Assembly (NCBI GenBank): GCA_937859595.1
Contig: CALMAH010000001.1
Coordinates: 62,001 to 126,000 of the forward strand
DNA length: 64,000 nucleotides
Reading direction: 5' to 3'
Source of the DNA: an uncultured Acidobacteriota bacterium
GTDB lineage: Bacteria > Acidobacteriota > Blastocatellia > Pyrinomonadales > Pyrinomonadaceae
Shown: positions 13,006-46,047 of the stretch, in pieces
How the letters are laid out: the number at the start of each line of letters is the position of its first letter
Numbering within the stretch: position 1 is the first letter of the stretch
Notes under the pieces: model-generated
Seen by the model: only the letters and a program-made list of their open reading frames with translations
What the model was told of the DNA's origin: nothing
Databases searched by the model: none
Program-made: the position numbers and the translations under genes

Positions 13006-14031
13006 ATGAAGATGAACGAACGATACAGCCGACAGATCTTGTTTCAAGAGATCGGCCGCGAGGGACAGGAAAAACTCTTGAATTCCCGCGTGCTGATAGT
13101 CGGCTGCGGCGCCCTTGGGGCTTCGCACGCGGAGATGCTTTCGCGTGCCGGGGTGGGCAAGCTCAGGATCGTTGACCGCGATTTTGTCGAGTTCACAAAC
13201 TTACAGCGGCAGACTCTCTTCAAGGAATCCGACGCCGCCGAACGCTTGCCGAAAGCGATCGCCGCAAAAAACCGTATCCGCGAGATAAATTCCGATATCG
13301 AGATAGAGTCGATCGTGGCTGACGTAAACAATTCGAACGTTGAATCGCTCATTGATGGCTGCGATCTTATTCTCGACGGCACCGACAACTTCCAGATCCG
13401 TTACCTGCTCAATGATGCCTGCGTAAAGCACGAAAAAACATGGATCTACGGTGCGGCCGTCTCAAGCTACGGCACGACGATGACCATCCGCCCCGGCGAA
13501 ACGCCCTGTCTCCGCTGCATCTTTGAAGAAATGCCGGATGCCGGAAGCGCCCCAACCTGCGACACGGCCGGAGTTATAATGCCGATCATCTCAAGCATCT
13601 CCGCTATTCAGGTAGCCGAAGCAATAAAGCTGCTTGTCGGCGACATCGCCTCCCTCCATCGATCGCTCGTACAGATCGATGTCTGGGCTAACGATTGGCG
13701 GAAGATAAAGCTCGCCGCCCCAAACGAGGACTGCGTCTGCTGTGTAAAAAAGCGTTTTGAGTTCCTCGATGCCGAAGCCCGGGAGTTCGCAGCGGTTCTC
13801 TGCGGCCGCGACGCCGTCCAGATCGCCCCGCCGACCAAGTCCTCGATCGATCTTCGAACACTCGCGGTTAGGTTGCGTGATCTCGGAGAGGTTAAACAGA
13901 ACGAATTCCTTGTGCGATTTACAGCAGACGAAAAAGAGATAACCGTCTTCGTTGACGGGCGGGCTATAATCAAAGGAACAGACGACATTTCCGCCGCCCG
14001 ATCAGTGTATGCAAAGTATGTTGGCGTTTAG
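13006..14031 (+). CDS. MoeB/ThiF-family adenylyltransferase
   Basis: A 341-aa E1-like enzyme that adenylates the C-terminal glycine of a sulfur-carrier protein (ThiS or MoaD type) in thiamine or molybdopterin synthesis. Visible: NERYSRQILFQEIG opening, nucleotide-binding VLIVGCGALGA (G33-G38), VDRDFVEFTNLQRQ with the conserved Asp and Arg, DGTDNFQIRYLLND, and two zinc Cys pairs (CLRC near residue 170, CVCC later). The last 80 residues replace the rhodanese domain found in some MoeB proteins with a small region (QNEFLVRFTADEKEITVF) resembling a degraded or minimal C-terminal domain. ATG at 13006. No ThiS/MoaD partner is nearby. Confidence 0.88.
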   Translation: MKMNERYSRQILFQEIGREGQEKLLNSRVLIVGCGALGASHAEMLSRAGVGKLRIVDRDFVEFTNLQRQTLFKESDAAERLPKAIAAKNRIREINSDIEIESIVADVNNSNVESLIDGCDLILDGTDNFQIRYLLNDACVKHEKTWIYGAAVSSYGTTMTIRPGETPCLRCIFEEMPDAGSAPTCDTAGVIMPIISSISAIQVAEAIKLLVGDIASLHRSLVQIDVWANDWRKIKLAAPNEDCVCCVKKRFEFLDAEAREFAAVLCGRDAVQIAPPTKSSIDLRTLAVRLRDLGEVKQNEFLVRFTADEKEITVFVDGRAIIKGTDDISAARSVYAKYVGV

Positions 14032-25498: not shown

Positions 25499-26251
25499 TT
25501 ATTTTTTTGCGGTTTCGGTCTTGGAGGGTGGTGTTTTTTTCGATTCCTTACCACTGTTATCCGATGATGGGTCGCGAGTGAGATGTAAACGCTCGGTAAT
25601 GTCGTGAAAGGTCTCATGAGCTACCTCTTCGACATGATGTAATTTTTCTTCGATCTTGTGAATGGTCTCGGGGTCGGCTTCCTCCACCTTTTCCGAGATC
25701 CAATACCGTTGAAGAAGATAAACGAAGGCAATACCGAACAGAATAATGAAGAGCAGTGCGATGCCGATCTGTTGGAAATCGCCGATTATCGTCGTGATCG
25801 CGCCGCTGAAGAAATATCCGACACCTGAGAGCAAAAGGACCCAAAGGAAGCAACTTATGAAGTCAAGGAGAAGAAAACGTCCGAAAGGCATCTTCCCAAT
25901 TCCGTAGAAAACACATATAGCAGCACGGATGCCGTAAATATATTTTGAGATTATTATGGCGAACGTGCCGAACTTATCTATGAGCTTCTCCACCCTCGGC
26001 TGGGCGATCTGATAAAACCGGTAATGCTTTGCCTTTTCGTGAAAGATCCGCCCGAGACCGTAGCCGATATGATCGCCGAGCATACCGCCCAGGGTGCCGA
26101 AGAGTAGCACCTTAAAGAAGCTATAATCGCCAAAAAAACCGGACTGGGCCAATGCGCCTGAGACCAGGAGTGTAATGTCGCCTTCGATCATGCATAGAGC
26201 GAAAACGGCGTAGATACCGTACGTCGCGATCAGCTGTAAAAACCACTCCAT
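25499..26251 (-). CDS. DedA-family membrane protein with C-terminal cytosolic tail
   Basis: 250 aa. It has DedA core features: an acidic residue in an early helix (MIEGDITLLVSGALAQSGFFG), the GGMLGDHIGYGLGR motif, and the KYIYGIRAAICVFYGIGKMPFGRF segment with conserved Arg and Gly. DedA proteins are envelope flippases or transporters acting on undecaprenyl phosphate or lipids. Here the conserved part ends near residue 190 and a basic/acidic tail (EEADPETIHKIEEKLHHVEEVAHETFHD and a KTPPSKTETAKK end) follows. ATG at 26251 begins the first membrane segment; an earlier ATG would add 42 residues without family character. The tRNA-Leu gene lies 143 bases upstream on the same strand. Confidence 0.85.
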   Translation of the reverse strand: MEWFLQLIATYGIYAVFALCMIEGDITLLVSGALAQSGFFGDYSFFKVLLFGTLGGMLGDHIGYGLGRIFHEKAKHYRFYQIAQPRVEKLIDKFGTFAIIISKYIYGIRAAICVFYGIGKMPFGRFLLLDFISCFLWVLLLSGVGYFFSGAITTIIGDFQQIGIALLFIILFGIAFVYLLQRYWISEKVEEADPETIHKIEEKLHHVEEVAHETFHDITERLHLTRDPSSDNSGKESKKTPPSKTETAKK

Positions 26252-26393: not shown

Positions 26394-26480
26394 TGGTGCT
26401 GAGGGCGGGAGTCGAACCCGCACGCCCCTAAGGACACAGGATTTTAAGTCCTGGGCGTCTACCAATTCCGCCACCCCAGC
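26394..26480 (-). tRNA. tRNA-Leu (anticodon UAA)
   Basis: Reading the minus strand: acceptor GCTGGGG pairs with CCTCAGC, discriminator A and CCA are encoded, D arm GCGGAATTGGTAGACGC, anticodon stem CAGGA/TCCTG around loop CTTAAAA (anticodon TAA), a long variable arm as expected for leucine tRNA, and T arm GCGGG-TTCGACT-CCCGC. The integrase of the accessory island starts 149 bases from its 5' end. Confidence 0.96.
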
Positions 26481-27975: not shown

Positions 27976-28329
27976 ATGGAGAAAACCTTAGGTCAGAGAA
28001 TCAGAGAACTTCGGGAAGAGCTTGACCTTTCGTTGCGGGAACTTGCCAAGAAAGTCGAGGGGCAAGCGGTTTCAGCAACACACCTTTCCGATATCGAGCA
28101 GGGTCATCGCTTTCCGTCCGATGAACTTCTTGCCAAGATAGCGAAAGCGCTGAATACGACGGTCGATCACTTGAAGAGTTTCGATACGCGGCCTCCTCTG
28201 GAGGAGATCAAAAGAATTTCCGAGTCCGATCCGAACTATGGATTCGCGCTGCGGAAGATGGTCGACAAGAAGATCTCTGGCGAGGAACTCCTTAAGTTTA
28301 TCGATAAACAGAGAAAGAACCGTTCGTGA
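27976..28329 (+). CDS. XRE-family transcriptional regulator (117 aa)
   Basis: The helix-turn-helix of the Cro/CI type spans about residues 5-65 (LGQRIRELREELDLSLRELAKKV, AVSATHLSDIEQGHRFPSDELLAKIAKALN). A short C-terminal helix region follows. ATG at 27976 was preferred over 27937 because that upstream start only adds poorly coding residues. TTGACT at 27937-27942 with TAAGCT 17 bases on is a weak promoter candidate. The ImmA/IrrE protease gene starts 7 bases after the stop. In such pairs the protease cleaves the repressor to switch the linked genes on. Confidence 0.87.
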   Translation: MEKTLGQRIRELREELDLSLRELAKKVEGQAVSATHLSDIEQGHRFPSDELLAKIAKALNTTVDHLKSFDTRPPLEEIKRISESDPNYGFALRKMVDKKISGEELLKFIDKQRKNRS

Positions 28330-28336
28330 TTATTTA

Positions 28337-29041
28337 ATGAAGAGCTACCGTTCAACCAAAGGACAGTTTAAGGAACGACCGTACTTCAAGGATGAAGAGA
28401 TCGAAATGATCTGTCTTGACGCATTGCGTGGCGTGAACCTTCTGCCGGGAGAGCCGGGGCCGGTCCGTGTGGACAGGTTCATTGAAAAGCATTTTAAGGT
28501 CACGCCGAAGTACGAGTTGCTGGAGGACGGCGTTCTCGGCTTGACGGTTTTCGGAAAGGCCGGCGTTAAGGACGTCGTAGTCTCGAGCGAGATCGATGAA
28601 GGCGGTTCAGTGGCGTCTGAACGACTCGTCCGCTCCACACTTGCCCACGAGGCTGGTCACGGGCTTTTCCATACGCACCTTTTTGCATTCGCCGAATTGT
28701 CGAAACCGCTCTTTGGTGATCACTCCGATCCGGCCATGCCAAAGGTGCTGTGTCGTGACGTGAATGCCGGTCGCGGAGGGAAGGGATACAACGGTGCCTG
28801 GTGGGAGTTTCAGGCGAACAAAGCGATCGGGGCCTTGCTTATGCCGAAGCCTCTTGTCGAGGCAGCGGTCGAGGACTTTACAACAGCGTCCGGCCTCCTC
28901 GGGCTTAGGGAGTTTGATCACGCTCGAACGCCGGAGGCGATAAGGCTGTTGATGGAGACATTCAACGTGAACGCACCGGTAGCAGAGATCCGGCTTGAGC
29001 AGTTTTTCCCGGCAAGCAGCAGCGGACAGCCGATGCTATAA
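28337..29041 (+). CDS. ImmA/IrrE-family metallopeptidase (234 aa)
   Basis: A zinc protease with HEAGH at H104-H108 and the third ligand in WWEFQANKAIGALLMP (E157), the IrrE-type pattern. Residues around VVSSEIDEGG resemble the IrrE N-terminal segment. Families of this type cleave XRE repressors after DNA damage or phage signals. Here it follows the XRE gene and precedes the ubiquitin-like gene by 113 bases in the same direction, so it may control the Ubl operon. ATG at 28337; the frame extends upstream inside the XRE gene without family character. Confidence 0.87.
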   Translation: MKSYRSTKGQFKERPYFKDEEIEMICLDALRGVNLLPGEPGPVRVDRFIEKHFKVTPKYELLEDGVLGLTVFGKAGVKDVVVSSEIDEGGSVASERLVRSTLAHEAGHGLFHTHLFAFAELSKPLFGDHSDPAMPKVLCRDVNAGRGGKGYNGAWWEFQANKAIGALLMPKPLVEAAVEDFTTASGLLGLREFDHARTPEAIRLLMETFNVNAPVAEIRLEQFFPASSSGQPML

Positions 29042-29154: not shown

Positions 29155-29472
29155 ATGAAAGACGAAAAAGACGAAAAAGAACAGCCCGAAAACGGGGATG
29201 AAGCGACAGACCGAAACTTCGCTGAAGCTGCGGTCGTCACGACCAGTGGCTCATATCCGAAAAACGGATTTGAACGCACACCGATCCGTCAAAAGATCAG
29301 TGTCATTCTGAAGAAAGCGGCAAACAAACTTGAGATCACCGACACGACCGATTGGGTTGCCACGGTCGGGGAGCAGGAAGTAAACCCGGACTCCAGCTAC
29401 CTCGACTGCGGTCTGAGCGGGGAGGTCGAGATTGACTACGGGCCGCGGGAAGGAGGCGGAGGACATGCATAA
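29155..29472 (+). CDS. ubiquitin-like modifier with C-terminal Gly4 tail (105 aa)
   Basis: A disordered acidic N-terminus (KDEKDEKEQPENGDE) is followed by a beta-grasp-like segment (RQKISVILKKAANKLEITD, DWVATVGEQEVNPDSSYLD, LSGEVEIDYG) and ends REGGGGHA. The Gly run two residues before the stop fits a modifier whose tail is trimmed to a diglycine. GGAG sits 9 bases before the ATG. The stop overlaps the start of the next gene by 8 bases. The following three genes encode a CEHH/E2-position protein, a JAB peptidase and an E1, which supports a conjugation role. The fold is read from pattern only. Confidence 0.72.
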   Translation: MKDEKDEKEQPENGDEATDRNFAEAAVVTTSGSYPKNGFERTPIRQKISVILKKAANKLEITDTTDWVATVGEQEVNPDSSYLDCGLSGEVEIDYGPREGGGGHA

Positions 29473-29905
29473 GGCTGCCTCCAAGATCCTATTCGATGCT
29501 GCCGTCGCGAAGCTTTCGGGCAGGTTGCTCGAGCTTCGCGACTGGAAGCTCAATTCGTCGGAATTCCCGGTACTCGACATTACTTTCGGGACGAGCGCTC
29601 CGGATAGGGCATTCCGGGCGCGATTTACCTTTGATGAGTGGGATGACCTTCCGCCTTCCGTTTGTTTCCTGACGACGGCTGGTGATCCTGCACGGTCGGT
29701 GCCACGGGATCCAAAAGGTGTGATCAATACTGGCAACCATCCGGTGACCGGATTGCCTTTCGTATGCTCGATAGGGTTCCGCGAGTATCACACGCACACC
29801 AGCCATGTGACGGATCACTGGTCGAACTATCGTGGGAAGCCGGGATACGACATTGGCGATTTGGTCACAAAGCTGTGGCAGGCATGGAAAAAGGCGGTGA
29901 AATGA
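29465..29905 (+). CDS. CEHH-motif protein in the E2 position of the Ubl operon (146 aa)
   Basis: The conserved cluster is PFVCSIGFREYHTHTSH: C101, E107, H109, H111 and H114, matching the Cys-Glu-His-His pattern of the predicted metal-binding CEHH family found beside prokaryotic Ubl/E1/JAB genes. The same family occupies the E2 slot in such operons, so C101 could be a transfer cysteine. Whether it binds metal, carries the modifier or both cannot be read from sequence. It overlaps the Ubl stop by 8 bases and the JAB start by 4 (ATGA). A second cysteine, C67, is not in the motif. Confidence 0.68.
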   Translation: MHKAASKILFDAAVAKLSGRLLELRDWKLNSSEFPVLDITFGTSAPDRAFRARFTFDEWDDLPPSVCFLTTAGDPARSVPRDPKGVINTGNHPVTGLPFVCSIGFREYHTHTSHVTDHWSNYRGKPGYDIGDLVTKLWQAWKKAVK

Positions 29906-30372
29906 AAACAACGATCATTAACAAAAATTTTATAACCGAGACGCTTGAACATCTGCAGAAGGACGGCAGGCGCGGTGTGGAAGGTGTCGTATTGTGGCTT
30001 GCTGGAAGTGACTCCGATCAGATCCGGATCAACCAGGTCTACCGCCCTGAACAACATGCCTCCTGGGGAAACTTCAGGATTCCTCGCAGTTCGATGATGG
30101 GATTGCTGCGGCATCTGCGTGCGACCGGGTCGAGTATAGCGGCACAAGTGCATTCGCATCCGGAGGAAGCATTTCACTCCCCGATCGATGACGAATGGGC
30201 GATCATCCGTCACACCGGGGCTCTTTCACTGGTGCTTCCCGATTATGCTCTCAGGACCTCCTTGGACACCTTCATTGCCCACACCGCGGTATACGAATTA
30301 TCTGCGGTGAATAAATGGGAGGAAGTCGCACCCGACTACGTCATCAATAAGTACCGGATCGTGAGTGAATGA
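29902..30372 (+). CDS. JAB/MPN isopeptidase (deubiquitinase-like, 156 aa)
   Basis: A JAMM motif is intact: H84-S-H86 (VHSHPEEAFHSP), then S93-x2-D96, with a candidate catalytic Glu at E27 (GVEGVVLW). The His-to-Ser gap is 6 residues, one fewer than in Rpn11-type enzymes but seen in bacterial JAB proteins. Substrates are expected to be the Ubl precursor tail (Gly4-His-Ala) or Ubl conjugates. ATGA overlaps join it to both neighbours. The ATG at 29902 was chosen over 29764, which lies within the CEHH gene. Confidence 0.85.
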   Translation: MKTTIINKNFITETLEHLQKDGRRGVEGVVLWLAGSDSDQIRINQVYRPEQHASWGNFRIPRSSMMGLLRHLRATGSSIAAQVHSHPEEAFHSPIDDEWAIIRHTGALSLVLPDYALRTSLDTFIAHTAVYELSAVNKWEEVAPDYVINKYRIVSE

Positions 30373-31868
30373 TGAATGAACAAGCTTTCAAAGAGAACAT
30401 AAAAACGCTGGCCCAGCTCGTCGGCTTGGAAGAAAGAGAGGCAGCCTCGCTGCTCGACAGTAAGATCGCCGTTTTCGCTAACGAAAGCGACAGGCTAAGC
30501 TGCGAACTCGCTGACTTCCTCGTTCTACTGCTAAGGCGAACGGTCACCGGCGTTTACCGGAATCCGGCCGCGAGCGATGACTTTGATGTCTCGGTTAAGA
30601 TCGGCGGAATCGCTCGCGAACAAAGGGCGGACGTTTTTGTCGCCATTAGCGATACGTGCCTTATCATCGGGCGCGATGAACTTGAAGCCTCCGGAGGGTC
30701 AGCCGGTTCGAGTCCGATCTGGGCGCTGACGGGGGCATGCTACTCTGCAGCCCAAGTCATGAAATTCCTAGTCGGTGAGGCGCTTCCGGTCCCAGCAGAC
30801 GGAAGCCTGACCGTCCGCGCCGCCGATATTTTCGGTAATTCTTTCGACGCTGGCGAACCATTCGACATCGGAACCACATGGCTTGCAGGGGCCGGTGCGA
30901 TCGGCAACGCATTCGTCTATGCGTTAAGCCTCCTGAATCCGTACGGGGTGCTTCATATCGCCGATCCGGACCGCGTCGATGGCGGCAACCTGAACCGCTG
31001 CATTTGCTTCTGTGACGATGACCTGCTCCATAACAAAGCTGAGCGATTAGCCGAATGGGCGGCGCCGCGAATGCCATCTGTAAAACTCATCCCACATTCG
31101 AAAGTGCTTGCAAAAGTACCGGAGTGCACGGACGGAGCCTGGCTCCAACGGATGGTCGTAGCGGTAGATAGCAGACTCGCTCGCCGCAACCTTCAGAATG
31201 AGCTCCCGGGCGAAGTGTTCGATGCGTCTACGACCGACATCCGAGAGTTCGTACTGCATTTCAACCGTCAACCGCTGAAAGGTTCAGCGTGTTTGAGTTG
31301 TATCTATTTCAACGATGCGGCTGAGGATGCTCACTCGATTCATGTCGCCGAAGCCCTTGGAGTAGATATAAAGGACATACGCCAGCAGTTTGTGTCTGCT
31401 AGTGCCGCAGCGAAGATCGCGGCAAAGTATGCGTACGTTACTGTGGAAGAGATCAAAGGCCTTGCATACGATACTTTGTTCAAGCAAATGTGCGGTGAGG
31501 GAAAACTCGTCGCCTCGGAAGACCGACAGGTATTTGCTCCATTTGCATTCGTCTCGGTGCTTGCAGGCGTTTTTCTGGCGATTGAATTCAAGCGACGCCT
31601 AACAAACCCGGCGGGCGAGAACACATATAATTACTGGAAGGTGAGCCCATGGTCCGCACCAGTTTCTCGCGGAAAACGTATGAGACGTGCTCGACCCGGT
31701 TGTCAGCACTGTTCCGACCCGGTGCTCGGGAAATTGGGACCTGCTCTATGGGATGAAACCAACCGAATTTCCGCGCAGACTTTCTCTAGATCCGTTCCCA
31801 TAATGCGAGAAGTGCGCGGTGTTTCTGCATCGCGGATGACCGAGGTTCACCCCGAAGACCTGAAATGA
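30369..31868 (+). CDS. E1/ThiF-like adenylyltransferase of the Ubl operon (499 aa)
   Basis: The N-terminal 165 residues are a helical/alpha-beta extension not seen in ThiF. The Rossmann core begins WLAGAGAIGNAFVYAL (G174-G179), with ADPDRVDGGNLNR as the conserved Asp/Asn/Arg element, K223 and AVDSRLARRN. Zinc pairs are C308-x2-C311 and C445-x2-C448. It should adenylate the Ubl C-terminus and pass it to a cysteine, by established E1 chemistry. Starts at 30369 in an ATGA overlap with the JAB gene; it is the last gene of the rightward operon, facing the HNH gene 31 bases away. Confidence 0.87.
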   Translation: MMNEQAFKENIKTLAQLVGLEEREAASLLDSKIAVFANESDRLSCELADFLVLLLRRTVTGVYRNPAASDDFDVSVKIGGIAREQRADVFVAISDTCLIIGRDELEASGGSAGSSPIWALTGACYSAAQVMKFLVGEALPVPADGSLTVRAADIFGNSFDAGEPFDIGTTWLAGAGAIGNAFVYALSLLNPYGVLHIADPDRVDGGNLNRCICFCDDDLLHNKAERLAEWAAPRMPSVKLIPHSKVLAKVPECTDGAWLQRMVVAVDSRLARRNLQNELPGEVFDASTTDIREFVLHFNRQPLKGSACLSCIYFNDAAEDAHSIHVAEALGVDIKDIRQQFVSASAAAKIAAKYAYVTVEEIKGLAYDTLFKQMCGEGKLVASEDRQVFAPFAFVSVLAGVFLAIEFKRRLTNPAGENTYNYWKVSPWSAPVSRGKRMRRARPGCQHCSDPVLGKLGPALWDETNRISAQTFSRSVPIMREVRGVSASRMTEVHPEDLK

Positions 31869-31899: not shown

Positions 31900-32862
31900 C
31901 TACCAATTCGCTTCAACCGTACCGCTTAGTTTGACTTCTTTCGTCGCTCCTCGTTCGGCTGCTCCTTTCTCGAATTTCTCCGACCAATATTGAACAAGGA
32001 TCGCAGAAGTCTTTGCGGGCGGATACTGAATGCCGATCGGATCGACTTCTGCGAACGATTCTTTGTCATCGATCGGATCGAGAAAACCCACCTTGGCGGC
32101 AGCGTGAATTGTCGGATCGCAGCGGCCGAGTAGGCAGACGAGCTGGATGACCCCGAAAAACTGGACGACGCCGACTATCTTTCCGTCTCTGCGCTCGACG
32201 TAGACCGTGTGCGAAAGGGCGGGCCGAAGATTGTCGAGGTCGTCATAATTCTCAAAGGACACATGTACGTCCCGGAAAGGCTCACGACTTTCCTCGAGCA
32301 CCATTCTCCCGAGAAGCGTTTCGACATAATCGTGTTCGGGCAAGGTCGATGCGAGAGCTACACTCATCTTGACGGCGAGCCTGGCCATGTCTTTGTCTAC
32401 GTAGTAGTCAAGCGGCACGTCCTTCATCGGTACCTCTACCTGAATCTTTTCGACGCTCCGAAGCCGATTTGCCAGTTTCGGATCTTTCAGGCGTTCGTTG
32501 AGTTCGTCGAGGTCGCGGTAGGTCACACCGATCGTGTTGCCTTGGGTATCCTTCTCGACGATCGGCTTCGATAGTCGCGGGACTACCTCTCCATCATTTA
32601 GCTCTAAGTTGAACTCCAGATCGTCTTGGCGCAAGGCCTTCTTCCAGGCGGGAATGTTCTGCTTGAGCTTCAGTCCCCAGCTCGCGATCGAAATGTGCAG
32701 CCGATGAAGATTGCCGGCCACGCGCGCCTCGAAATCGTGGCTGAACTTGTTATTGCAGTCGTAGCAGGCTGCCACGCACCGCCGGCCGCCGAGGAACTCG
32801 TTGAAAATGTGGTCGCGAGAAGGAGTGGTAATCTCTGCAATACAGTATGGACAGATCTTCAT
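31900..32862 (-). CDS. HNH endonuclease-like protein (320 aa)
   Basis: Starts MKICPYCIAEITTPSRDHIF: zinc cysteines C4 and C7, then the DHIFNEFLGG helix start and a second Cys pair (CYDCNN) ahead of KFSHDFE, the HNH/HNN finger layout. The following 240 residues are an unassigned domain (e.g. DKDMARLAVKMSVALA, SHTVYVERRDGKIVGVVQF) that may bind DNA ends or a partner. ATG at 32862 is preferred to 32892. It is the last leftward gene after the pAgo operon's protease (75-base gap), so it may be read from the same promoter or its own; linkage is uncertain. Confidence 0.78.
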   Translation of the reverse strand: MKICPYCIAEITTPSRDHIFNEFLGGRRCVAACYDCNNKFSHDFEARVAGNLHRLHISIASWGLKLKQNIPAWKKALRQDDLEFNLELNDGEVVPRLSKPIVEKDTQGNTIGVTYRDLDELNERLKDPKLANRLRSVEKIQVEVPMKDVPLDYYVDKDMARLAVKMSVALASTLPEHDYVETLLGRMVLEESREPFRDVHVSFENYDDLDNLRPALSHTVYVERRDGKIVGVVQFFGVIQLVCLLGRCDPTIHAAAKVGFLDPIDDKESFAEVDPIGIQYPPAKTSAILVQYWSEKFEKGAAERGATKEVKLSGTVEANW

Positions 32863-32937
32863 TCGTTGATTTGAGGATAGAAACGGGTTCACTCGACTAC
32901 CCAGGCTTAGACTTCTTAATAGCCAAGCAAGAGGTGG

Positions 32938-34083
32938 TTATGCAGCTTCCGCTGCCGAAAGAGTTGTAATCCCTAGCAGTTCATCGATAGCGGCATTCTC
33001 CCACTCACTAAAGGCCGTGGGGTCATTTAGGAATGTTTCCCACGCCCTATTCAGAAGGCTCACGGGTAAGGTCATTCCATTGGCATCGTCGAAACCCAAA
33101 GGATTGCTCTCGACTAACATATCGTCGATCGTCGCATTCACTATAGGAAGGAAGGCATCGCTAAAAAACCCGAAATATTCCTCGGTGATTTTCGAACAGG
33201 CGGCGATGTCGGACCACGCTTCCAAAAGTTCGGCCGCCAATTTCGGGAACCCCATTGCATCGGCGCGACTCGCAAGTAATTTAACTCTGATCCAGCTTAC
33301 TGGATGAACGCGGAATGCGAGCGATTCTTCTGGAACATGAAACTCTTCGTGACCCAGCATCCGGCAGTACATCGAAAAGGCATGTATGAACGAAGGCCCT
33401 CCTATCTTTAGTCCCACCGCGTCGCAGAATAGTTCCTGGGTCCACTCGAACCACGTGATCGCTATCTTGTCGAGCTTCCGATTTGCCTCCAGCGAGAACC
33501 GGTCATTCCGCACAACGCTCGGCTGGAGTCGGATCGCAATCTTTTGCTGAAGCTCTTTTACCAGAGCTTCCATTTCAACCTTGTGGAAAGCGTAAAGTAC
33601 GTGACCGAATTCGTGAAAGAGAAGCGGAAGATACAGGATCTGTCCATGGGCGGATGATGGAAAGAAATAGATCGTCGGCATTCCTGGGTAGGGCAGACAT
33701 GCAAACATTCCTGCACTAATCGCAAATGGATTGTCCCGAGTTGCACGGTGCGATTCGTGGAGCCATGAAACAAGACGAAGTGCGGGAAGGTCGGAACGTT
33801 TTGAACGCAGTACCGGTACGATATATCTCGAGTTGAGAATGGTCACGTTACGGGCAATGATATTCGTGTCGCTCACAATATCGATAAGGATCGAATCATC
33901 CGGTTTCGCGAGATTTTCGAAGTTAGTCTCGATAGCGTCGAGGATCGAACCGCATACCGAGACTAGCCAGTCACGATACGGCTCGAGTTCTCGCGGCAAA
34001 TGCTGGTCGTAATCGATTTCCCGGCGGATCTTTTCAACTTCGTTTCGGAAGTCAAGGTTATTTTGAGCGATAATTGTTCGCAC
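32938..34083 (-). CDS. HEXXH zinc metallopeptidase, last core gene of the pAgo operon (381 aa)
   Basis: The zinc-binding helix is LLFHEFGHVLYAF (H157, E158, H161). About 55 residues on, WTQELFCDAVG provides E217 and D221 as third-ligand candidates, and HPVSWIRVK (H260) follows, a layout I have seen in unassigned bacterial proteins (HExxH, then EhFxDAxGL, then HPxxxxR). A peptidase role is inferred from the motif only. It begins with GTG, overlapping the upstream stop by one base (TAGTG), so translation is coupled. Substrate unknown; proteases are common effectors or regulators in defence operons. Confidence 0.72.
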   Translation of the reverse strand: MRTIIAQNNLDFRNEVEKIRREIDYDQHLPRELEPYRDWLVSVCGSILDAIETNFENLAKPDDSILIDIVSDTNIIARNVTILNSRYIVPVLRSKRSDLPALRLVSWLHESHRATRDNPFAISAGMFACLPYPGMPTIYFFPSSAHGQILYLPLLFHEFGHVLYAFHKVEMEALVKELQQKIAIRLQPSVVRNDRFSLEANRKLDKIAITWFEWTQELFCDAVGLKIGGPSFIHAFSMYCRMLGHEEFHVPEESLAFRVHPVSWIRVKLLASRADAMGFPKLAAELLEAWSDIAACSKITEEYFGFFSDAFLPIVNATIDDMLVESNPLGFDDANGMTLPVSLLNRAWETFLNDPTAFSEWENAAIDELLGITTLSAAEAA

Positions 34084-34535
34084 TAGTTTTCCCCGATAAC
34101 CTCCGAGATGTCTTCGTTAAAATGCTCCTCGATCAGCGACCTCACGTCTTCGAGCCCTGCGATCAATGCATGTCGGTCATCAACCTCTGCAGCGCGAAGT
34201 GCGTCGCGAAAGTCGTTTATCGATCTAGCCAACAGATCCGAGCGAAATTTTCTCGTGCTTCGCCGAGCCTTGATATAACGCGTTCCGAGCTGGCGCATTC
34301 GCATGCTCGTCCCGAGTGCGGGCCCTCCGTCCGGCTGTTCGGCCCGTGAGACAACCAAATCGAAAGCCTCCAGGAACGCGTCGACCTCCGAGAAGGCTTT
34401 TATTACTTTCAGTGAATGTTCCCCCGACAGATTTCCTGACTCGCGAAGCTTCAGGTCGATTAGTATCGCATTCAGTGCGGATATCAGCTGCTGGCTGTAC
34501 TGAAAGCTCTGGTAGGACAACCATTTTACGCTCAT
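34083..34535 (-). CDS. helical protein between pAgo and the metallopeptidase (150 aa)
   Basis: Almost entirely alpha-helical (QQLISALNAILIDLKLRES, EHSLKVIKAFSEVDAFLEAF, FRSDLLARSINDFRDALRAAE), without cysteines or membrane segments and with an acidic end. No family recognised. GGAGGAAACG precedes the ATG. It starts 25 bases after the pAgo stop and overlaps the next gene by one base. Likely an adaptor or inhibitor for its neighbours, but this is inference. Confidence 0.6.
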   Translation of the reverse strand: MSVKWLSYQSFQYSQQLISALNAILIDLKLRESGNLSGEHSLKVIKAFSEVDAFLEAFDLVVSRAEQPDGGPALGTSMRMRQLGTRYIKARRSTRKFRSDLLARSINDFRDALRAAEVDDRHALIAGLEDVRSLIEEHFNEDISEVIGEN

Positions 34536-34560: not shown

Positions 34561-36855
34561 TCATTTTATTCGTCGCACCTCCTGCGCGGTCCTGCTGGTC
34601 AATTCCTCGTCAGTCCGTTTGATCTCCATAGGCAACCTCTGAGCCATTCGCGGGTTCGACCAGTTCAAATGACAAGACTGGTGGAGGTCGTTGGCAGGGT
34701 CAAGAATGTTTTCAATAGCACTCGTCGCTTTGATTAGGACGGGCTCTGCCGTTCCCTGATTCAACGTAGCGGCTCCAGTGTTTGCAAGCAGAACCGAGCG
34801 CTTTGAAAAGCGGATCATCGTACCTTCAAGTGCGTTTGTCACGCGGCCATCCCGCAGAACCTCCCACAGGCGAATGTTCTTCACGCTTTGCTTGTGAAAG
34901 TCGACAACGTCTACAGGGGCATCTCGTCGCAAGAAGCCAATATCTCTGAGGCGGCCGGCGGCCGCACGGATCGCATCGAGTTCCTTCCCGTATTGGCGCC
35001 CATCCCGAACGACCAGCATCGGGCCGAGATCCGAAAAACCGCTCGCGACCGCCCGATCAGCAAGCTCGACGACCTTGTCTTGAAGAATAATCTCGTTGAT
35101 CGTTTCTTTCTGCGAGTCGTTCTTACTTTCAACGTCGGTTTCCATTCTGAATGGGGTGGAGGAGCCGGGTTGGAAAATCAGCAATGAGACCGCGAAGTAT
35201 CTGTGACCCTGACTGACATCGATACCTAGCCGAACTTGATATTTCGGTTGATTCTTGATCGTCCAAGGCACGCCGTCGATCTGCTGTACAAGATCCATGA
35301 CGTTAAGCTCGATGAAGCGGTTCCAGTGGCGCGGGATCTTGACCGGTGTAGGGAGTCCATCCCTTTGTTCAAATTCGAACTCGCCTGCGTACCTTTCAAG
35401 CGTGGATCTTTTAATTCGTTTTACTCGCCAACCTTTTAGTTCGAACTCGACGTTGAAGTAGGATGACGGGCTCTCGTCTTCGAAAACGAAAAGGACCATT
35501 CCTCCGGGGCTTTCGGACTGCAGTTTCGCTATGGCGTCTTCCTGAGACTTGTAACGAATGCACTCAGCCACAGTATTGCTTCGGGTGAGTTCTGAATATA
35601 GCTCTTCTATTGAATCGGAAAGAGCTTTTGTGACGCCGACCTCAAACTTCTCCGGGATCGATATATACAAGGTTCGAGGGGCCGCTGTAGGATACGAAAA
35701 GCAACCGAATTTCGAAAGATGCGGCAGCCTTTGAGCGTAGAAGTCCTTGTGCTCCCTAAAATTGCCATTCTTTGGGGCTCTCAATACGTTGCCGTCGCCA
35801 AATTCCAGGTCGGGAGCCTCTGCTCTGAACACATGGGTATCCTTTGGACGCCAGAACCCGGTTTCCAACCCGGGAACCTCACTCCCGAGACTGTCATCTC
35901 CCACTCTGCTCCAGAATGATTCAACAAGGGGCTTTCGTTCATCGGGAGCGATCTTGTCGAGCGAGTTGAGCGATCGCGGGAGCGCGTCGTTCATCACCCT
36001 GAGACGCAAGTGTGACGCCGCGACCATCACCGACCCTGAAATTCCCCCGAAGGAGACGAGGGCAACAGATTCATCGTCGGCGAGTTCGACCCCGTGCTCA
36101 AGCTTGTAGTACTCCTGAAGCGAAGAGAAGTTCTTACCCTTAAACCTAATCGGATCGGTGTTCGCAGCCGTCACACCGCGAAGCATCTTGTCGAAGTAAC
36201 ACTTGGAATATTGATTCGGTTTCGACCTGTAGAGAAGGGTCCCCTTATTTCCGTGTTGCCGTTGAGAGAGCCGGTTAAAGAGTCTCTCGTTAGACTTCTG
36301 GAGGTGAGGCGGCTGATTCAAATCGAAAAAATCTGCCACAGTCATCTCGGTAAAGAATGCGGTGCTCACATCGATCACGACGCCGATGCCCACATCTTCT
36401 ATTGGAAGCGTCGCTACCTCAAATCTCCGTGCGACCATTATTCCGTCGCGTTCGACGATCGGCTGCCGTTCATAAAATATCCGGTAGCTGTCCAAGGTCC
36501 AGAATATTCGGCTGTTGTATATCTTTCTGATTAAACTGCGTTCGACGAGAGCAGCCATCAACTCCCGTTCAGATTCGTTCGCGAACGACAGGCGTCGTGG
36601 GCCGATATCATTTACTTCCAGCCGCCAGTTCTCATCCTCGACGATAGTCGGCGGGACAGGTCGATCCGACAGTACTAGTATTTCGGACTTGTTGCTGGAA
36701 TCGATCACCGCTGAAAGTCCGTGCTTAGTTGAAAGTCGGTTGCATACTTTTTCCGAATTCTCTGCGGTCGTCGAGTGCCCCTTTATCGTGGCCCGCCTTA
36801 CGTTAAGCCGAAGATCTTTCCCGTACCGCAGAATCCGAATGTTTGTCTCGATCAT
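34561..36855 (-). CDS. long prokaryotic Argonaute (pAgo), PIWI domain with complete DEDD-like site
   Basis: A 764-aa guide-directed nuclease candidate. The C-terminal PIWI domain carries D546 (VRLGIDVSQG), a likely glutamate finger near E584 (SQKETINEI), D618 (VVRDGRQYG) and D749 (EIKRTDEEL); spacings match TtAgo-like enzymes (about 35 residues between the first three), so cleavage activity is predicted. A K/H-containing MID-PIWI element (VDFHKQSVKN) lies nearby. Residues 380-500 look like the MID domain; the N-terminal 300 residues hold N and possibly PAZ regions, unverified. It begins 2 bases after the nuclease gene's stop, so the two are coupled. Guide type (DNA or RNA) cannot be told. Confidence 0.85.
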   Translation of the reverse strand: MIETNIRILRYGKDLRLNVRRATIKGHSTTAENSEKVCNRLSTKHGLSAVIDSSNKSEILVLSDRPVPPTIVEDENWRLEVNDIGPRRLSFANESERELMAALVERSLIRKIYNSRIFWTLDSYRIFYERQPIVERDGIMVARRFEVATLPIEDVGIGVVIDVSTAFFTEMTVADFFDLNQPPHLQKSNERLFNRLSQRQHGNKGTLLYRSKPNQYSKCYFDKMLRGVTAANTDPIRFKGKNFSSLQEYYKLEHGVELADDESVALVSFGGISGSVMVAASHLRLRVMNDALPRSLNSLDKIAPDERKPLVESFWSRVGDDSLGSEVPGLETGFWRPKDTHVFRAEAPDLEFGDGNVLRAPKNGNFREHKDFYAQRLPHLSKFGCFSYPTAAPRTLYISIPEKFEVGVTKALSDSIEELYSELTRSNTVAECIRYKSQEDAIAKLQSESPGGMVLFVFEDESPSSYFNVEFELKGWRVKRIKRSTLERYAGEFEFEQRDGLPTPVKIPRHWNRFIELNVMDLVQQIDGVPWTIKNQPKYQVRLGIDVSQGHRYFAVSLLIFQPGSSTPFRMETDVESKNDSQKETINEIILQDKVVELADRAVASGFSDLGPMLVVRDGRQYGKELDAIRAAAGRLRDIGFLRRDAPVDVVDFHKQSVKNIRLWEVLRDGRVTNALEGTMIRFSKRSVLLANTGAATLNQGTAEPVLIKATSAIENILDPANDLHQSCHLNWSNPRMAQRLPMEIKRTDEELTSRTAQEVRRIK

Positions 36856-36857
36856 TA

Positions 36858-37835
36858 CTAATTACTCCGCTGAAACTCCGGACAAACTGTCCTGAAGGGG
36901 CACATCCTGCAAATCTTCGGGTGTTCTGAAGCCGTGAAGGCCCCCGATACCCCAGTCGCTCCGTACCGATCCATAGCCTCCATTCTGCCGATGTCTTGGA
37001 TGATCCGAGCCTTGGCCCGAAGAATTTCCTGAACCGAAGCCCGGTCCTCCGTAACAGAGTCAAGTTCGAGATAGGCTTTAAAGATTCTGATCCTTTCCGG
37101 GTCGATGCCGAGCTTGTTTGAAACAAGCAACGCGTAAGAGAGTAGCTGCAGGCTGTCGTCCGCACTCGTTGAGGTTCCGGTCTTCCAGTCGACAATGCTT
37201 ATCCCGTCTTCGGTTGGAAATGCGAGGTCGATCTTCCCGCTCGCGGAACTCTCTCCGAATTTGATCGATAGTCTTGCCTCGAGGATCGCGTCGGAATGAA
37301 GCCCTCCGTAACGGAACGTTTCGAACTGACGTGACAGAAGAAAATTCGAGACGGCGGTGCCGAGACTTTCGTTCGCGCTATTCCATCTTTCCATCGCCGC
37401 GTCATCGCCGAGGACGAAGTCTGAAAGAAGAACTGCGTATTGAGAACTCGACGGCTGTCTCGTTCGCTGATACTCGAGCGAAGCTTCCAGGTCATTTCGA
37501 AACATGTCTCTCGCCCACGAATCGATACCGGTGTTCGTGATCCCAGGGTTTTCGCGGAGCCGCTTGAAATGCCTGTCGATCACAAAATGAACAATTTCGC
37601 CCATTCTGAGTGGGATAGATTTCAACCCCTTTAGGTGCTTCAACTGTTCCTTTAGCGGTTCATTCGGAGCCGACCGCGCACTCGAGCCGTAATATTGGTA
37701 GTAATACTTGAGCAGGCACGTTTCAAAATTGCCGCGTCTGGAGTATGACCACTTCACCGGGCGGCTCTTCGCCGCGGCGCCCGAATGTCCGGGGTCAAAT
37801 AGATCGAACAGCGATGTTTGCGCCGGATCGGCCAT
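36858..37835 (-). CDS. PD-(D/E)XK nuclease with Cas4/AddB-type Fe-S cysteines (325 aa)
   Basis: The nuclease core has GKIDLAF (D203), IVDWKTG (D216, K218) and a QLLSYAL helix (Q230), the RecB-like motif set. A single cysteine upstream (C40 in FETCLLKY) and three at the C-terminus (C309-x2-C312-x5-C318) reproduce the iron-sulfur arrangement of Cas4 and AddB. Such enzymes trim DNA ends, so it could make pAgo guides or degrade targeted DNA. It lies between the XRE gene (10-base gap) and pAgo (2-base gap) and is clearly cotranscribed with both. Confidence 0.85.
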   Translation of the reverse strand: MADPAQTSLFDLFDPGHSGAAAKSRPVKWSYSRRGNFETCLLKYYYQYYGSSARSAPNEPLKEQLKHLKGLKSIPLRMGEIVHFVIDRHFKRLRENPGITNTGIDSWARDMFRNDLEASLEYQRTRQPSSSQYAVLLSDFVLGDDAAMERWNSANESLGTAVSNFLLSRQFETFRYGGLHSDAILEARLSIKFGESSASGKIDLAFPTEDGISIVDWKTGTSTSADDSLQLLSYALLVSNKLGIDPERIRIFKAYLELDSVTEDRASVQEILRAKARIIQDIGRMEAMDRYGATGVSGAFTASEHPKICRMCPFRTVCPEFQRSN

Positions 37836-37845
37836 ACGTGAGTAC

Positions 37846-38190
37846 CTACTTTCGCAGCGACTTCAAGCGTCTGGTTAGCCTCTGCCATTCGTCGTCCGTC
37901 AGGTTCATGGTCTGAGCATGCTTGACGAACTTTTGAGCCGCCTCACTTGTGCTCAGCATCTGCTTTGCTTCCGAGGTGATCTTGCCCGTAAGACTTAGAA
38001 GAATCTCGGAGGGAACTCCGAGTACCGTACAAATCCTCTCGACCGTATCCGCCGACGGGGTGGGAATCCGATCATTCTCGACCTTGCTTATGTAAGAAAA
38101 ATCCACGGAAACTTTCTCGGCCAGTTCCCGCTGACTGATATTTCTCGCCCGCCGGATCTCGCGTAATGTTTCGCCAAATGTTTGCCCCAT
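37846..38190 (-). CDS. XRE-family regulator heading the pAgo operon (114 aa)
   Basis: A Cro/CI helix-turn-helix (FGETLREIRRARNISQRELAEKV, DFSYISKVENDRI) occupies the first 65 residues; a helical tail (SEAAQKFVKHAQTMNLTDDEWQRL) follows. ATG 38190 is chosen because GGAG stands 9 bases upstream and the promoter's predicted start (about 38208) leaves room for a short leader; an ATG at 38205 sits at the transcription start. A near-perfect inverted repeat over the -35 is a likely binding site, so it probably represses its own operon (nuclease, pAgo, helical protein, protease). Confidence 0.85.
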   Translation of the reverse strand: MGQTFGETLREIRRARNISQRELAEKVSVDFSYISKVENDRIPTPSADTVERICTVLGVPSEILLSLTGKITSEAKQMLSTSEAAQKFVKHAQTMNLTDDEWQRLTRRLKSLRK

Positions 38191-38214
38191 ATTTGCATGC
38201 TCCATTTCACTATA

Positions 38215-43251: not shown

Positions 43252-46038
43252 CTATTCAGTAGATATATCGTCCGAAAGTCCGAGCTCCCGCAAAGCAATT
43301 CGCGTGTCTTCGGCGTGCTGCTTCGAAACACCGTCGGGGCTTGTGGTCTCAAATGACACATTTATCCTCAAACCGGAGTTAGCCAATTTCATAAGCACCT
43401 TATAGAAGATCGAGAACTTGTTGTATGGGATCTCGCCGGACCATCTGACAACGGGTACGACCTCGGCGGACGGGGATGGTGGGAATAATATTCCTCCACC
43501 TTGAGTACCTGGTATCGTTCCTGTGTCTGTGCCGCCTGACCCGTCTCCCCCATTCCCAGGAATATCGATCGGGGGAATTGGTGGTTCGATACGCCCTAAC
43601 TCCTTGTATATCTCTGCGTCTTCTTTTTTGAGAATGAACACGTCGTCAGCGATCTCGATCTGCTCGCGAGTGATGCTTTCGTTAAAGATGAACGGGTCGT
43701 AGCCACCAGCGGTTTTAGCGACATAGGCAAACTGCCCGCTGCTGACGCCGCTTGCAATGGTTTCCTTGATGGCGTCACCGGATAGCAGACGGGGAAACTG
43801 CGGTGAAGCGAAGAATGCATCGCGAATGGATTTCGTACTCCATTCTTTGTAGACGGGCGACCAGTGGCGGGTTAGGTAACTCGAATTGATCGATGGTGTA
43901 ACGTCGCCGTCCTGCGTTAGGCGGTTTAGTATGTACGCGATCATCGAGTCGGCAGCGCTCGAATGTACGAGGCCAAGATCGATCTTGCGAAGGCTATTGT
44001 CCTTGTCGAGCAGCACAATGGTCTTGTACGTACGCCAGACGCTCTCCTTAACATCACGCCGAGCCTTTTGAAGGTTTTCGGAAAGCTGTTTCTTTTGACT
44101 CTCGTCGAGACGTAACGCCGTTGCTTCGGACTCGATCGCTTCCCAGGCGAGCACCTTTTTCGCATCTTCTCGTAGGGCCGAGTGTAGATCCGGAATGATC
44201 CAGATCAGTGCGCTCTTGAAAGTTCGGGCTGACGAACCGCTTTCCCGCGTCATCTGCTCGACCATCTGCAATGTCCGTTCGTCCTGGATCCCGGACGACG
44301 GATCCCCAACAGCGATGGTTAACACCGGTCGATCGGAGATTTGGCCGCTTTTCTCCGGAAAGTAAACACGCTCGACGCCGCTGCCCTTTTTGAAAACTTC
44401 GGTCACCTCAGCCTTAACCCGCTCCTCGGTTTCCTTCGCTTGGACGGTGGCTCGTCGGTCGGATAGGATCTTATTGAGGTTTGCTGCAATACCGAAACGG
44501 TACTTGTTCTTCTCGACCGACAGGTAATAGGCGTTCGTCGTGAGGGCCTCAAGCGCGGTCTCGACATTTCCGATATCAAGGTCCGGTTCAGCCACCGCAG
44601 CTCGGATCTCCGGCAAAGTTGTTTCTCCCTTCGCCTGTCCTCCATTCGACTCAAAAAAGATCGTTGTCGCGATCTTTCGATGTAACCGAGCTTTCTTGAT
44701 TGCATTGATGGCTTCTTTGTCGAGCTGAATCGCGTGAGAGTCGGGCTTACCGCAGATGTCTGCAATAATGGCCGTTTCGAGCTTATCCTCTCCAAGCTGT
44801 TCAAAGACTGCACGGCGAAAATCCTGATCCTCTAGCGGAGCGGTTCCAAGCGAGATCAAATGATCTTTATGTGCTCCCTTGAATCCGTCTGTGTAGGCCT
44901 TAGACGTCCATAGTGCGAGCATTCTCAGTACGCCGCGCGTTCGCTGAAACCGAGGCAACGCCTGCCATTTGCGTTCAAATACTGAGAGGACCATCGGGTG
45001 AAATGGATAGGCGTCGATGAATGCCTGCCGCGCGTTGTCTGTATCGAAGACCTTCGGTAGCTGGTCCTTATGGTTAGTGATCCAGTCACCGTACTCGTGG
45101 CAGGTTTGGATCGCCTCTTTCGTCAACAGAACACGGCCCTGCTGGTCGATCGCGTTTGCGTCCCACTCGAACAGCCGACGTCGGATTATCTCGGACGTCT
45201 CATTTTCGGATGACATGGCGACGGCCTTACCGAGCCGGTCCAGCACCTTCTTTAGACGCTGATAGTCCGCCTGGTCCTCGACGGACATTTCAAGTTCTGA
45301 CGCCGGTATCGAGACCGCAAGAACAGCGCCCGACCGTCCGCGCATTTCCTCAGAAAGATTGTGGAGAAATGTATACATCTGGCCCGACGCGCCTGACTTG
45401 CGGGAGCGATTGATGTAGTTCATCAACTCGTCCATTAGAATGAGGCACGGCTTGTCGGCAGGAAGAAACTTTCGAATATCGTCGCCGCCAGGGGCAGTCA
45501 GCTCGGCATCCAGGTTTGCAATCGAAGCAAAGCCTTCATCGCCGCCCAATTGGTACGCGATCTCACCCCAAGGCGTGCGACGCAAGGGCGTCCCGTCATC
45601 GCCGCCGCGCCCATTGCTTGAAAAATCCGTACCGACAAAAACTGCCGTCCGGGCGGACGGGATCGAGTCGATTCGTGCCGCGTCCAGGATCTTGCTTACA
45701 CCCGACCAGGAATTGGCCTTCGCGCCGGAGGTCGCGAGATGGTAGAGCAGCGTAAGGGCGTGGGTTTTACCGCCGCCGAACTGCGTCGCCATGTTGAACA
45801 CCGCATTGGTTTCAGTTCTCTCGCCTGACAGACGCCGGACCACCTCAGATGCGATCTCGGTGAGGCTCTTGGTCATGTACGTGCGATCAAAGAAGGTCTT
45901 AGGATCGCGGTAATCGACCGCAGTATTTGGATCGGTTATACGCCCAAGATTGACCGCAAATTCTGAAGCGTCGAGAGGTCGGCCTTCTCGAAGATCCTCG
46001 CGGGGTGTAACAACGTTGTACCAGGGTTTTAATGCCAT
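43252..46038 (-). CDS. DUF499 AAA-like ATPase (928 aa)
   Basis: The DUF499 family appears in methylase-plus-helicase defence cassettes. Visible: MALKPWYNVVTPREDLR at the start, Walker A in ATQFGGGKTHALT (K91), a Walker B-like stretch CLILMDELMNYI, and the long helical body. A Gly/Thr-rich linker (GNGGDGSGGTDTGTIPG) separates a C-terminal beta-rich domain. It follows the DUF1156 methylase by 9 bases and would be its ATP-driven partner. Exact mechanism is unknown. Confidence 0.85.
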   Translation of the reverse strand: MALKPWYNVVTPREDLREGRPLDASEFAVNLGRITDPNTAVDYRDPKTFFDRTYMTKSLTEIASEVVRRLSGERTETNAVFNMATQFGGGKTHALTLLYHLATSGAKANSWSGVSKILDAARIDSIPSARTAVFVGTDFSSNGRGGDDGTPLRRTPWGEIAYQLGGDEGFASIANLDAELTAPGGDDIRKFLPADKPCLILMDELMNYINRSRKSGASGQMYTFLHNLSEEMRGRSGAVLAVSIPASELEMSVEDQADYQRLKKVLDRLGKAVAMSSENETSEIIRRRLFEWDANAIDQQGRVLLTKEAIQTCHEYGDWITNHKDQLPKVFDTDNARQAFIDAYPFHPMVLSVFERKWQALPRFQRTRGVLRMLALWTSKAYTDGFKGAHKDHLISLGTAPLEDQDFRRAVFEQLGEDKLETAIIADICGKPDSHAIQLDKEAINAIKKARLHRKIATTIFFESNGGQAKGETTLPEIRAAVAEPDLDIGNVETALEALTTNAYYLSVEKNKYRFGIAANLNKILSDRRATVQAKETEERVKAEVTEVFKKGSGVERVYFPEKSGQISDRPVLTIAVGDPSSGIQDERTLQMVEQMTRESGSSARTFKSALIWIIPDLHSALREDAKKVLAWEAIESEATALRLDESQKKQLSENLQKARRDVKESVWRTYKTIVLLDKDNSLRKIDLGLVHSSAADSMIAYILNRLTQDGDVTPSINSSYLTRHWSPVYKEWSTKSIRDAFFASPQFPRLLSGDAIKETIASGVSSGQFAYVAKTAGGYDPFIFNESITREQIEIADDVFILKKEDAEIYKELGRIEPPIPPIDIPGNGGDGSGGTDTGTIPGTQGGGILFPPSPSAEVVPVVRWSGEIPYNKFSIFYKVLMKLANSGLRINVSFETTSPDGVSKQHAEDTRIALRELGLSDDISTE

Positions 46039-46047
46039 AGTTCCTTC

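What the first reader, a model, noticed from the sequence alone, without database searches (positions are those of the whole stretch)
29155..31868. Compact ubiquitin-like conjugation operon: Ubl, CEHH/E2-slot protein, JAB, E1
Seen: four genes with overlaps of 8, 4 and 4 bases; Ubl with a Gly4 end; a CEHH cluster (C101, E107, H109, H111); a JAMM motif; an E1 Rossmann with two zinc Cys pairs. Known: prokaryotic Ubl/E1/E2/JAB operons, including Bil-type systems, modify phage proteins. Inference: this is a divergent member with the order Ubl-CEHH-JAB-E1.
Basis: partly seen in the sequence, partly recalled or inferred. Interest (0 to 1): 0.75.

Follow-up and report, generated by a model that had tools for sequence, protein, structure and literature searches.

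The report
Bil-type ubiquitin-like antiphage operon
Four overlapping bacterial genes encode a miniature ubiquitin-tagging pathway (tag, loading enzyme, transfer enzyme, tag remover) of the already known Bil antiphage type, here headed by a two-gene switch of the kind that turns immune genes on after DNA damage.

Summary
Four intact genes overlap by 8, 4 and 4 bases at 29155-31868. They encode a beta-grasp Ubl with a Gly4 tail, a CEHH E2, a JAMM protease and an E1. The nearest solved structures of the E2, JAB and E1 are BilB, BilC and BilD, and the Ubl model also matches BilA.

The gene order is not divergent: Ubl-E2-JAB-E1 is exactly BilABCD. The tested catalytic residues are kept.

In gene trees the operon falls in a sister clade of the structurally solved Bil operon (100/100 split), with a short E2, an E1-N domain instead of Prok-E2_C, and a REGGGGA tail. 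Members occur in two Dyella genomes and on rhizobial plasmids.

An XRE + ImmA/IrrE pair lies directly upstream on the same strand. Close homologues head Bub-type and CBASS genes in other acidobacteria, so it looks like a swappable CapH/CapP-like, DNA-damage-responsive cassette. The operon lies in a defence island beside an integrase and tRNA-Leu.

Verdict: a new member of a known kind, in a divergent clade. No function was tested.

The parts
29155..29472 (+). bilA-type Ubl, 105 aa, C-terminal REGGGG-HA
   Evidence: ORF with purine-rich ribosome-binding sequence; beta-grasp model, pLDDT 76, matches SUMO, ISG15 and Bil Ubl 8tyx_A; tail conserved in relatives
29465..29905 (+). bilB-type CEHH E2, 146 aa; C101, E107, H109, H114
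   Evidence: PF14455 1e-6; best PDB sequence match BilB; three best Foldseek matches are BilB chains
29902..30372 (+). bilC-type JAMM protease, 156 aa; E27, H84, H86, S93, D96
   Evidence: best PDB match BilC 1.6e-15; PADLOC BilC 5e-11
30369..31868 (+). bilD-type E1, 499 aa; E1-N and ThiF domains; catalytic C375; Cys pairs C308/C311 and C445/C448
   Evidence: best PDB match BilD 3e-12; C375 aligns with BilD C417; PADLOC BilD 2e-6
27976..28329 (+). XRE-type repressor (CapH-like)
   Evidence: HTH_3 2.5e-14; PADLOC capH 1e-10; start codon
28337..29041 (+). ImmA/IrrE-type metallopeptidase (CapP-like), HEAGH motif
   Evidence: PADLOC capP 7e-7; HExxH kept in 8 homologues; same pair heads Bub-type and CBASS genes in L050, L051 and L048
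26630..27865 (+). tyrosine integrase at the left end of the defence island
   Evidence: Phage_integrase 7e-11; left flank up to DedA is conserved in the genus
26394..26480 (-). tRNA-Leu(TAA) next to the integrase
   Evidence: absent beside DedA in five same-genus loci

Best explanation
This is a Bil (bacterial ISG15-like) operon, bilA-bilB-bilC-bilD, under a CapH/CapP-like switch. Shown by homology: a beta-grasp modifier, an E1 with its catalytic Cys, a CEHH E2 and a JAMM protease, with active-site residues intact. Inferred: (1) BilC trims His-Ala to expose the terminal Gly; (2) BilD adenylates that Gly and holds the Ubl as a thioester on C375; (3) the Ubl moves to BilB C101, helped by H114; (4) it is attached to phage virion proteins so that progeny are defective, as for the Collimonas Bil system (PMC11364771); (5) BilC removes stray conjugates. 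The upstream XRE repressor probably keeps the operon off until the ImmA/IrrE peptidase, activated by damaged or single-stranded DNA, cleaves it.
For: Gene order equals BilABCD. Best PDB hits are BilD, BilB and BilC. Ubl model is a beta-grasp that matches the Bil Ubl, and the E2 model's three best PDB matches are BilB. C101, H109, H114 and E1 C375 are invariant across both Bil clades. Same operon in six other loci. The regulator pair or its kin adjoin 5 of the 7 clade members, and close homologues head Bub-type and CBASS genes. Defence-island setting with pAgo and Hma.
Against: No function tested. PADLOC BilA and BilB models do not match. E1 N-terminal domain and E2 length differ from the solved Bil. 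The E2 model is weak around the active site. An integrase precedes the regulators, so they might serve the mobile element. The phage-protein target is carried over from a distant relative.
Confidence: 0.82

Rival explanations
1. The operon conjugates its Ubl mainly to host proteins as a DNA-damage or stress response, as has been considered for Bub operons, and not to phage proteins.
For: The regulator pair is of a DNA-damage-responsive kind and also heads Bub-type operons, for which protection against phage had not been shown and a stress role was considered (PMC13373217).
Against: The enzymes are Bil, not Bub, a Bil system is known to modify a phage tail fibre, and the operon sits among antiphage genes.
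Confidence: 0.12
2. A Bub-type or other multi-ubiquitin system rather than Bil.
For: Some clade members have a Multi_ubiq part in the Ubl, and the regulator pair is shared with Bub-type operons.
Against: Window genes lack a JAB-E1 fusion, Prok-E2_E and DUF6527, which L050 and L051 have. All three enzymes match Bil structures best.
Confidence: 0.03
3. A sulfur-carrier pathway (ThiS/MoaD-like Ubl with a ThiF/MoeB-like E1 and a JAB) for cofactor biosynthesis.
For: The E1 has weak similarity to ThiF and MoeB models.
Against: No sulfur-metabolism genes nearby, an E2 with a conserved active site is present, and the E1 has a catalytic Cys aligned with BilD C417.
Confidence: 0.01
4. The XRE/ImmA pair regulates the integrase or element transfer (ImmR/ImmA type), and the Bil genes are expressed independently.
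For: Integrase lies directly before the pair, and ImmR/ImmA modules commonly control mobile elements (PMC10233336).
Against: Close homologues head immune operons (Bub-type in L050 and L051, CBASS CD-NTase in L048), and similar pairs adjoin other members of this Bil clade.
Confidence: 0.3

Closest known systems
BilABCD solved in PDB 8tyx-8tz0 (BilC virtually identical to the pNGR234a type; row 6c of Iyer et al. 2006, PMC1779556)
   Same: Gene order Ubl-E2-JAB-E1; single beta-grasp Ubl; CEHH E2; JAMM protease; E1 with catalytic Cys and Cys pairs
   Different: E2 of 146 aa against about 205 aa; E1-N against Prok-E2_C; tail REGGGGHA against KAGVAGA; separate clade in E1 and E2 trees at 100/100
Collimonas sp. 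OK412 ISG15-like (Bil) system
   Same: Same four components by description
   Different: Described BilA has two Ubl domains; the window Ubl has one. Sequences not compared directly, only PADLOC models, which match BilC and BilD here but not BilA or BilB
Bub (bacterial ubiquitination-like) operons
   Same: An XRE + ImmA/IrrE pair directly upstream, on the same strand (L050, L051)
   Different: Different enzymes: JAB-E1 fusion, DUF6527, Prok-E2_E in one; no CEHH E2
CapH/CapP regulators of CBASS
   Same: XRE repressor gene plus HExxH metallopeptidase gene beside an immune operon; PADLOC capH and capP match
   Different: Divergent sequence, longer peptidase, co-directional; cleavage and ssDNA response not tested

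Membership tests
Bil (BilABCD) | Four genes in the order Ubl, E2, JAB, E1 | tested here: met
Bil (BilABCD) | BilA: beta-grasp Ubl with processable C-terminal Gly | tested here: met
   Beta-grasp model matches the Bil Ubl; Gly4 tail with short extension. Processing itself not testable; PADLOC BilA model not matched
Bil (BilABCD) | BilB: UBC-fold E2 with CEHH (C138, E144, H146, H151) | tested here: met
   C101, E107, H109, H114 at the same spacing; Foldseek best match BilB
Bil (BilABCD) | BilC: JAMM protease | tested here: met
   E27, H84, H86, S93, D96; BilC 1.6e-15
Bil (BilABCD) | BilD: E1 with inactive N-terminal domain and catalytic Cys (C417) | tested here: met
   C375 aligns with C417; BilD 3e-12; the N-terminal domain is E1-N, not Prok-E2_C
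Bil (BilABCD) | Conjugates the Ubl to proteins and protects against phage | not testable with these tools
Bub | JAB-E1 fusion with DUF6527 / Multi_ubiq components, as seen in L050 and L051 | tested here: not met
   Window genes lack these, compared with L050 and L051
CapH/CapP regulators | XRE repressor plus HExxH metallopeptidase next to an immune operon | tested here: met
   capH 1e-10, capP 7e-7, HEAGH; kin head Bub-type and CBASS genes
CapH/CapP regulators | ssDNA-activated cleavage of the repressor controls the adjacent operon | not testable with these tools
   needs reporter and cleavage assays

The most novel reading that the evidence does not exclude
The window operon belongs to a distinct, functionally unexplored Bil subtype: short E2, E1-N type E1, REGGGGA tail, interchangeable one-part or two-part Ubl. 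It would be DNA-damage-inducible through CapH/CapP-like or WYL cassettes that are swapped among Bil, Bub and CBASS operons, and its targets may differ from the tail fibre modified by Collimonas Bil.
Probability: 0.35. Interest if true: 0.5.

Novelty: new member of a known kind. Interest (0 to 1): 0.36.

Why it matters
Bil is one of the few bacterial pathways with the full E1-E2-Ubl-DUB logic of eukaryotic ubiquitination. A compact, single-Ubl member from Acidobacteriota with its active sites intact gives a small test case for how far the E1 N-terminal domain, the E2 length and the Ubl tail can vary without losing function. The regulator swap (kin of the same XRE/ImmA cassette before Bil, Bub-type and CBASS genes) supports the view that immune operons share a plug-in DNA-damage switch. 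PADLOC's BilA and BilB models miss this operon, so scans that need all four may under-count Bil.

Tried and rejected
Viral contigs gave no relative of the E2, and annotated phages gave no relative of the E1. Promoter and terminator scans were at chance level, and no inverted repeat was found before bilA. No duplicated tRNA-Leu end (attL/attR) was found on the contig, and genes right of the island up to the contig end did not match what follows DedA in two relatives, so the island's right end and size stay open. 300 genomes of the Dyella order gave no member beyond the two Dyella. The sulfur-carrier and Bub readings were considered and rejected (see rivals). An ImmR/ImmA mobile-element role for the regulators is weakened but not excluded, because close homologues head immune operons. 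The JAB tree is poorly resolved, with long branches; only the E1 and E2 trees are used. The primary Bil, Bub and Ubl-diversity papers were not in the library, so their content is cited second hand.

Full report
OBSERVATION. The four genes exist as described. Ubl 29155-29472 (105 aa), CEHH protein 29465-29905 (146 aa), JAB 29902-30372 (156 aa) and E1 30369-31868 (499 aa) overlap by 8, 4 and 4 bp. Pfam finds Metal_CEHH, ThiF and E1-N above their curated cut-offs, and Prok-JAB just below. The same four genes in the same order recur in two Dyella genomes and on four rhizobial plasmids, at 31-48% identity per protein. The Bradyrhizobium barranii copy (L009) looks frameshifted near the Ubl end.

WHAT IT IS. 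The nearest solved structures are all from the Bil system: E1 to BilD 8tyz_A (3e-12), JAB to BilC 8tyx_B (1.6e-15), E2 to BilB 8tyz_C (1.7e-3; alignment over the active site). The Ubl has no significant sequence match. Its AlphaFold2 model (pLDDT 76, three-sequence alignment) has the beta-grasp order of strands and helix. Foldseek returns a designed ubiquitin, SUMO, ISG15 and the Bil Ubl 8tyx_A (6e-5). The E2 model (pLDDT 70, weak at 106-115) has BilB chains as its three best matches in the PDB, followed weakly by eukaryotic UBC domains. The E1 cleft itself was not modelled.

ACTIVE SITES. BilB's CEHH is C138, E144, H146, H151 (PMC11354881). By alignment and spacing the window residues are C101, E107, H109 and H114. 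E107 is Gln in L007. BilD's catalytic C417 aligns with window C375, invariant in all 11 E1s; the first Cys pair C308/C311 is likewise invariant, and C445/C448 is invariant wherever sequence was available. The JAMM Glu E27 aligns with the position mutated in the BilC E33A structure. The Ubl tails of this clade end EGGGG plus a short extension (HA, A, AF, ASGAR), against KAGVAGA, KAGAAG or KAGVGGSSV in the DUF2604-type Ubls. BilC-type trimming before activation is therefore expected; this is inference.

GENE ORDER AND FAMILY. BilA-B-C-D is Ubl-E2-JAB-E1, the same order as here, so order is not a novelty. The operon of pNGR234a, the prototype of row 6c in Iyer et al. 2006, has a JAB that matches the solved BilC over the stretch compared, so row 6c and Bil are the same kind. 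Iyer et al. already noted row 6c members whose E1 carries a different N-terminal domain; that fits the E1-N domain found here, though those sequences were not compared. E1 and E2 trees separate the seven window-type operons from the pNGR234a/BilABCD type with 100/100 support. Window-type members have a shorter E2, and the window E1 has E1-N instead of Prok-E2_C. Their Ubl may be about 100 aa (window, Dyella, L010) or 235-239 aa with an extra Multi_ubiq part (L007, L008). PADLOC recognises BilC and BilD in the window but not BilA or BilB. Both kinds are rare: a CEHH match in 2 of 297 Acidobacteriota genomes and 4 of 399 Pseudomonadota genomes.

REGULATION. Directly upstream and on the same strand lie an XRE gene (27976-28329) and an ImmA/IrrE-type peptidase gene (28337-29041, HEAGH). 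PADLOC calls them capH (1e-10) and capP (7e-7). Other clade members also have such a pair, divergently transcribed (L002, L003, L009, L010; capP down to 2e-37), or a WYL regulator (L007). The window's own subtype of pair recurs in 5 of 246 other acidobacterial genomes. In L050 and L051 it is directly upstream and co-directional with Bub-type genes (Multi_ubiq, JAB-ThiF, DUF6527). In L048 it is co-directional with a CD-NTase gene and divergent from an Hma system. CapH/CapP is known to control CBASS and to flank many Bub operons, and CapK/CapS was reported before five Bil operons (PMC13373217). A CapH/CapP-like pair before Bil was not found in the papers that could be read. An ICE-type ImmR/ImmA role (PMC10233336) is not excluded, because an integrase precedes the pair.

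SETTING. The left flank is conserved in the genus up to the DedA gene (25499-26251). After it come tRNA-Leu, an integrase and a defence island holding a class II pAgo with a Cas4-like nuclease and HmaABC genes. None of the 12 same-genus genomes sampled has a CEHH match. The island's right end was not found.

MECHANISM. The best-supported reading is Bil conjugation: trimming, E1 adenylation and thioester, E2 transfer, attachment to phage virion proteins, reversal by BilC, with expression released by DNA damage. The enzymes and their residues are shown by homology. Targets, protection and induction are inferred from Collimonas Bil (PMC11364771) and from CapH/CapP.

VERDICT. A real, intact operon of a known kind: a new member in a divergent clade, with an informative regulator. 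Moderate interest.

Noticed in passing
34561-37835: Class II prokaryotic Argonaute (764 aa, PADLOC 7e-33) with a Cas4-like nuclease gene (325 aa) directly upstream of it on the same strand, and an XRE gene at 37846-38205.
   Followed up: partly
43252-54841: Hma-type defence genes: HmaC (DUF499 ATPase), HmaB (DUF1156 methylase) and HmaA helicase, with a DUF6508 gene between HmaB and HmaA.
   Followed up: partly
31900-34535: Genes convergent with the Bil operon: an HNH_5 protein (330 aa), a 381-aa protein with no family hit that contains an HEFGH metallopeptidase-like motif, and a 150-aa protein without a family hit. They lie between Bil and the Argonaute.
   Followed up: no
L003:11472-15928: In Dyella sp. 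S184 the Bil operon is followed by genes that look like a Tn7-like transposon (TnsA-, TnsB-, TnsC- and TniQ-like by eye), so Bil may be its cargo.
   Followed up: no
L048:6615-16001: An acidobacterial CD-NTase (CBASS-type) gene and an Hma system share one divergent XRE/ImmA regulator pair.
   Followed up: partly
L036, L037, L040: Three same-genus genomes have other JAB genes (in L036 with an E1-like gene nearby) that are not of this Bil type.
   Followed up: no
L011:6727-8085: On Rhizobium etli p42a a Bil operon is followed by TIR-domain and caspase-family genes on the same strand.
   Followed up: no
13006-14031: A second, MoeB/ThiF-like E1 gene in the window; by eye it looks like ordinary cofactor biosynthesis.
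   Followed up: no
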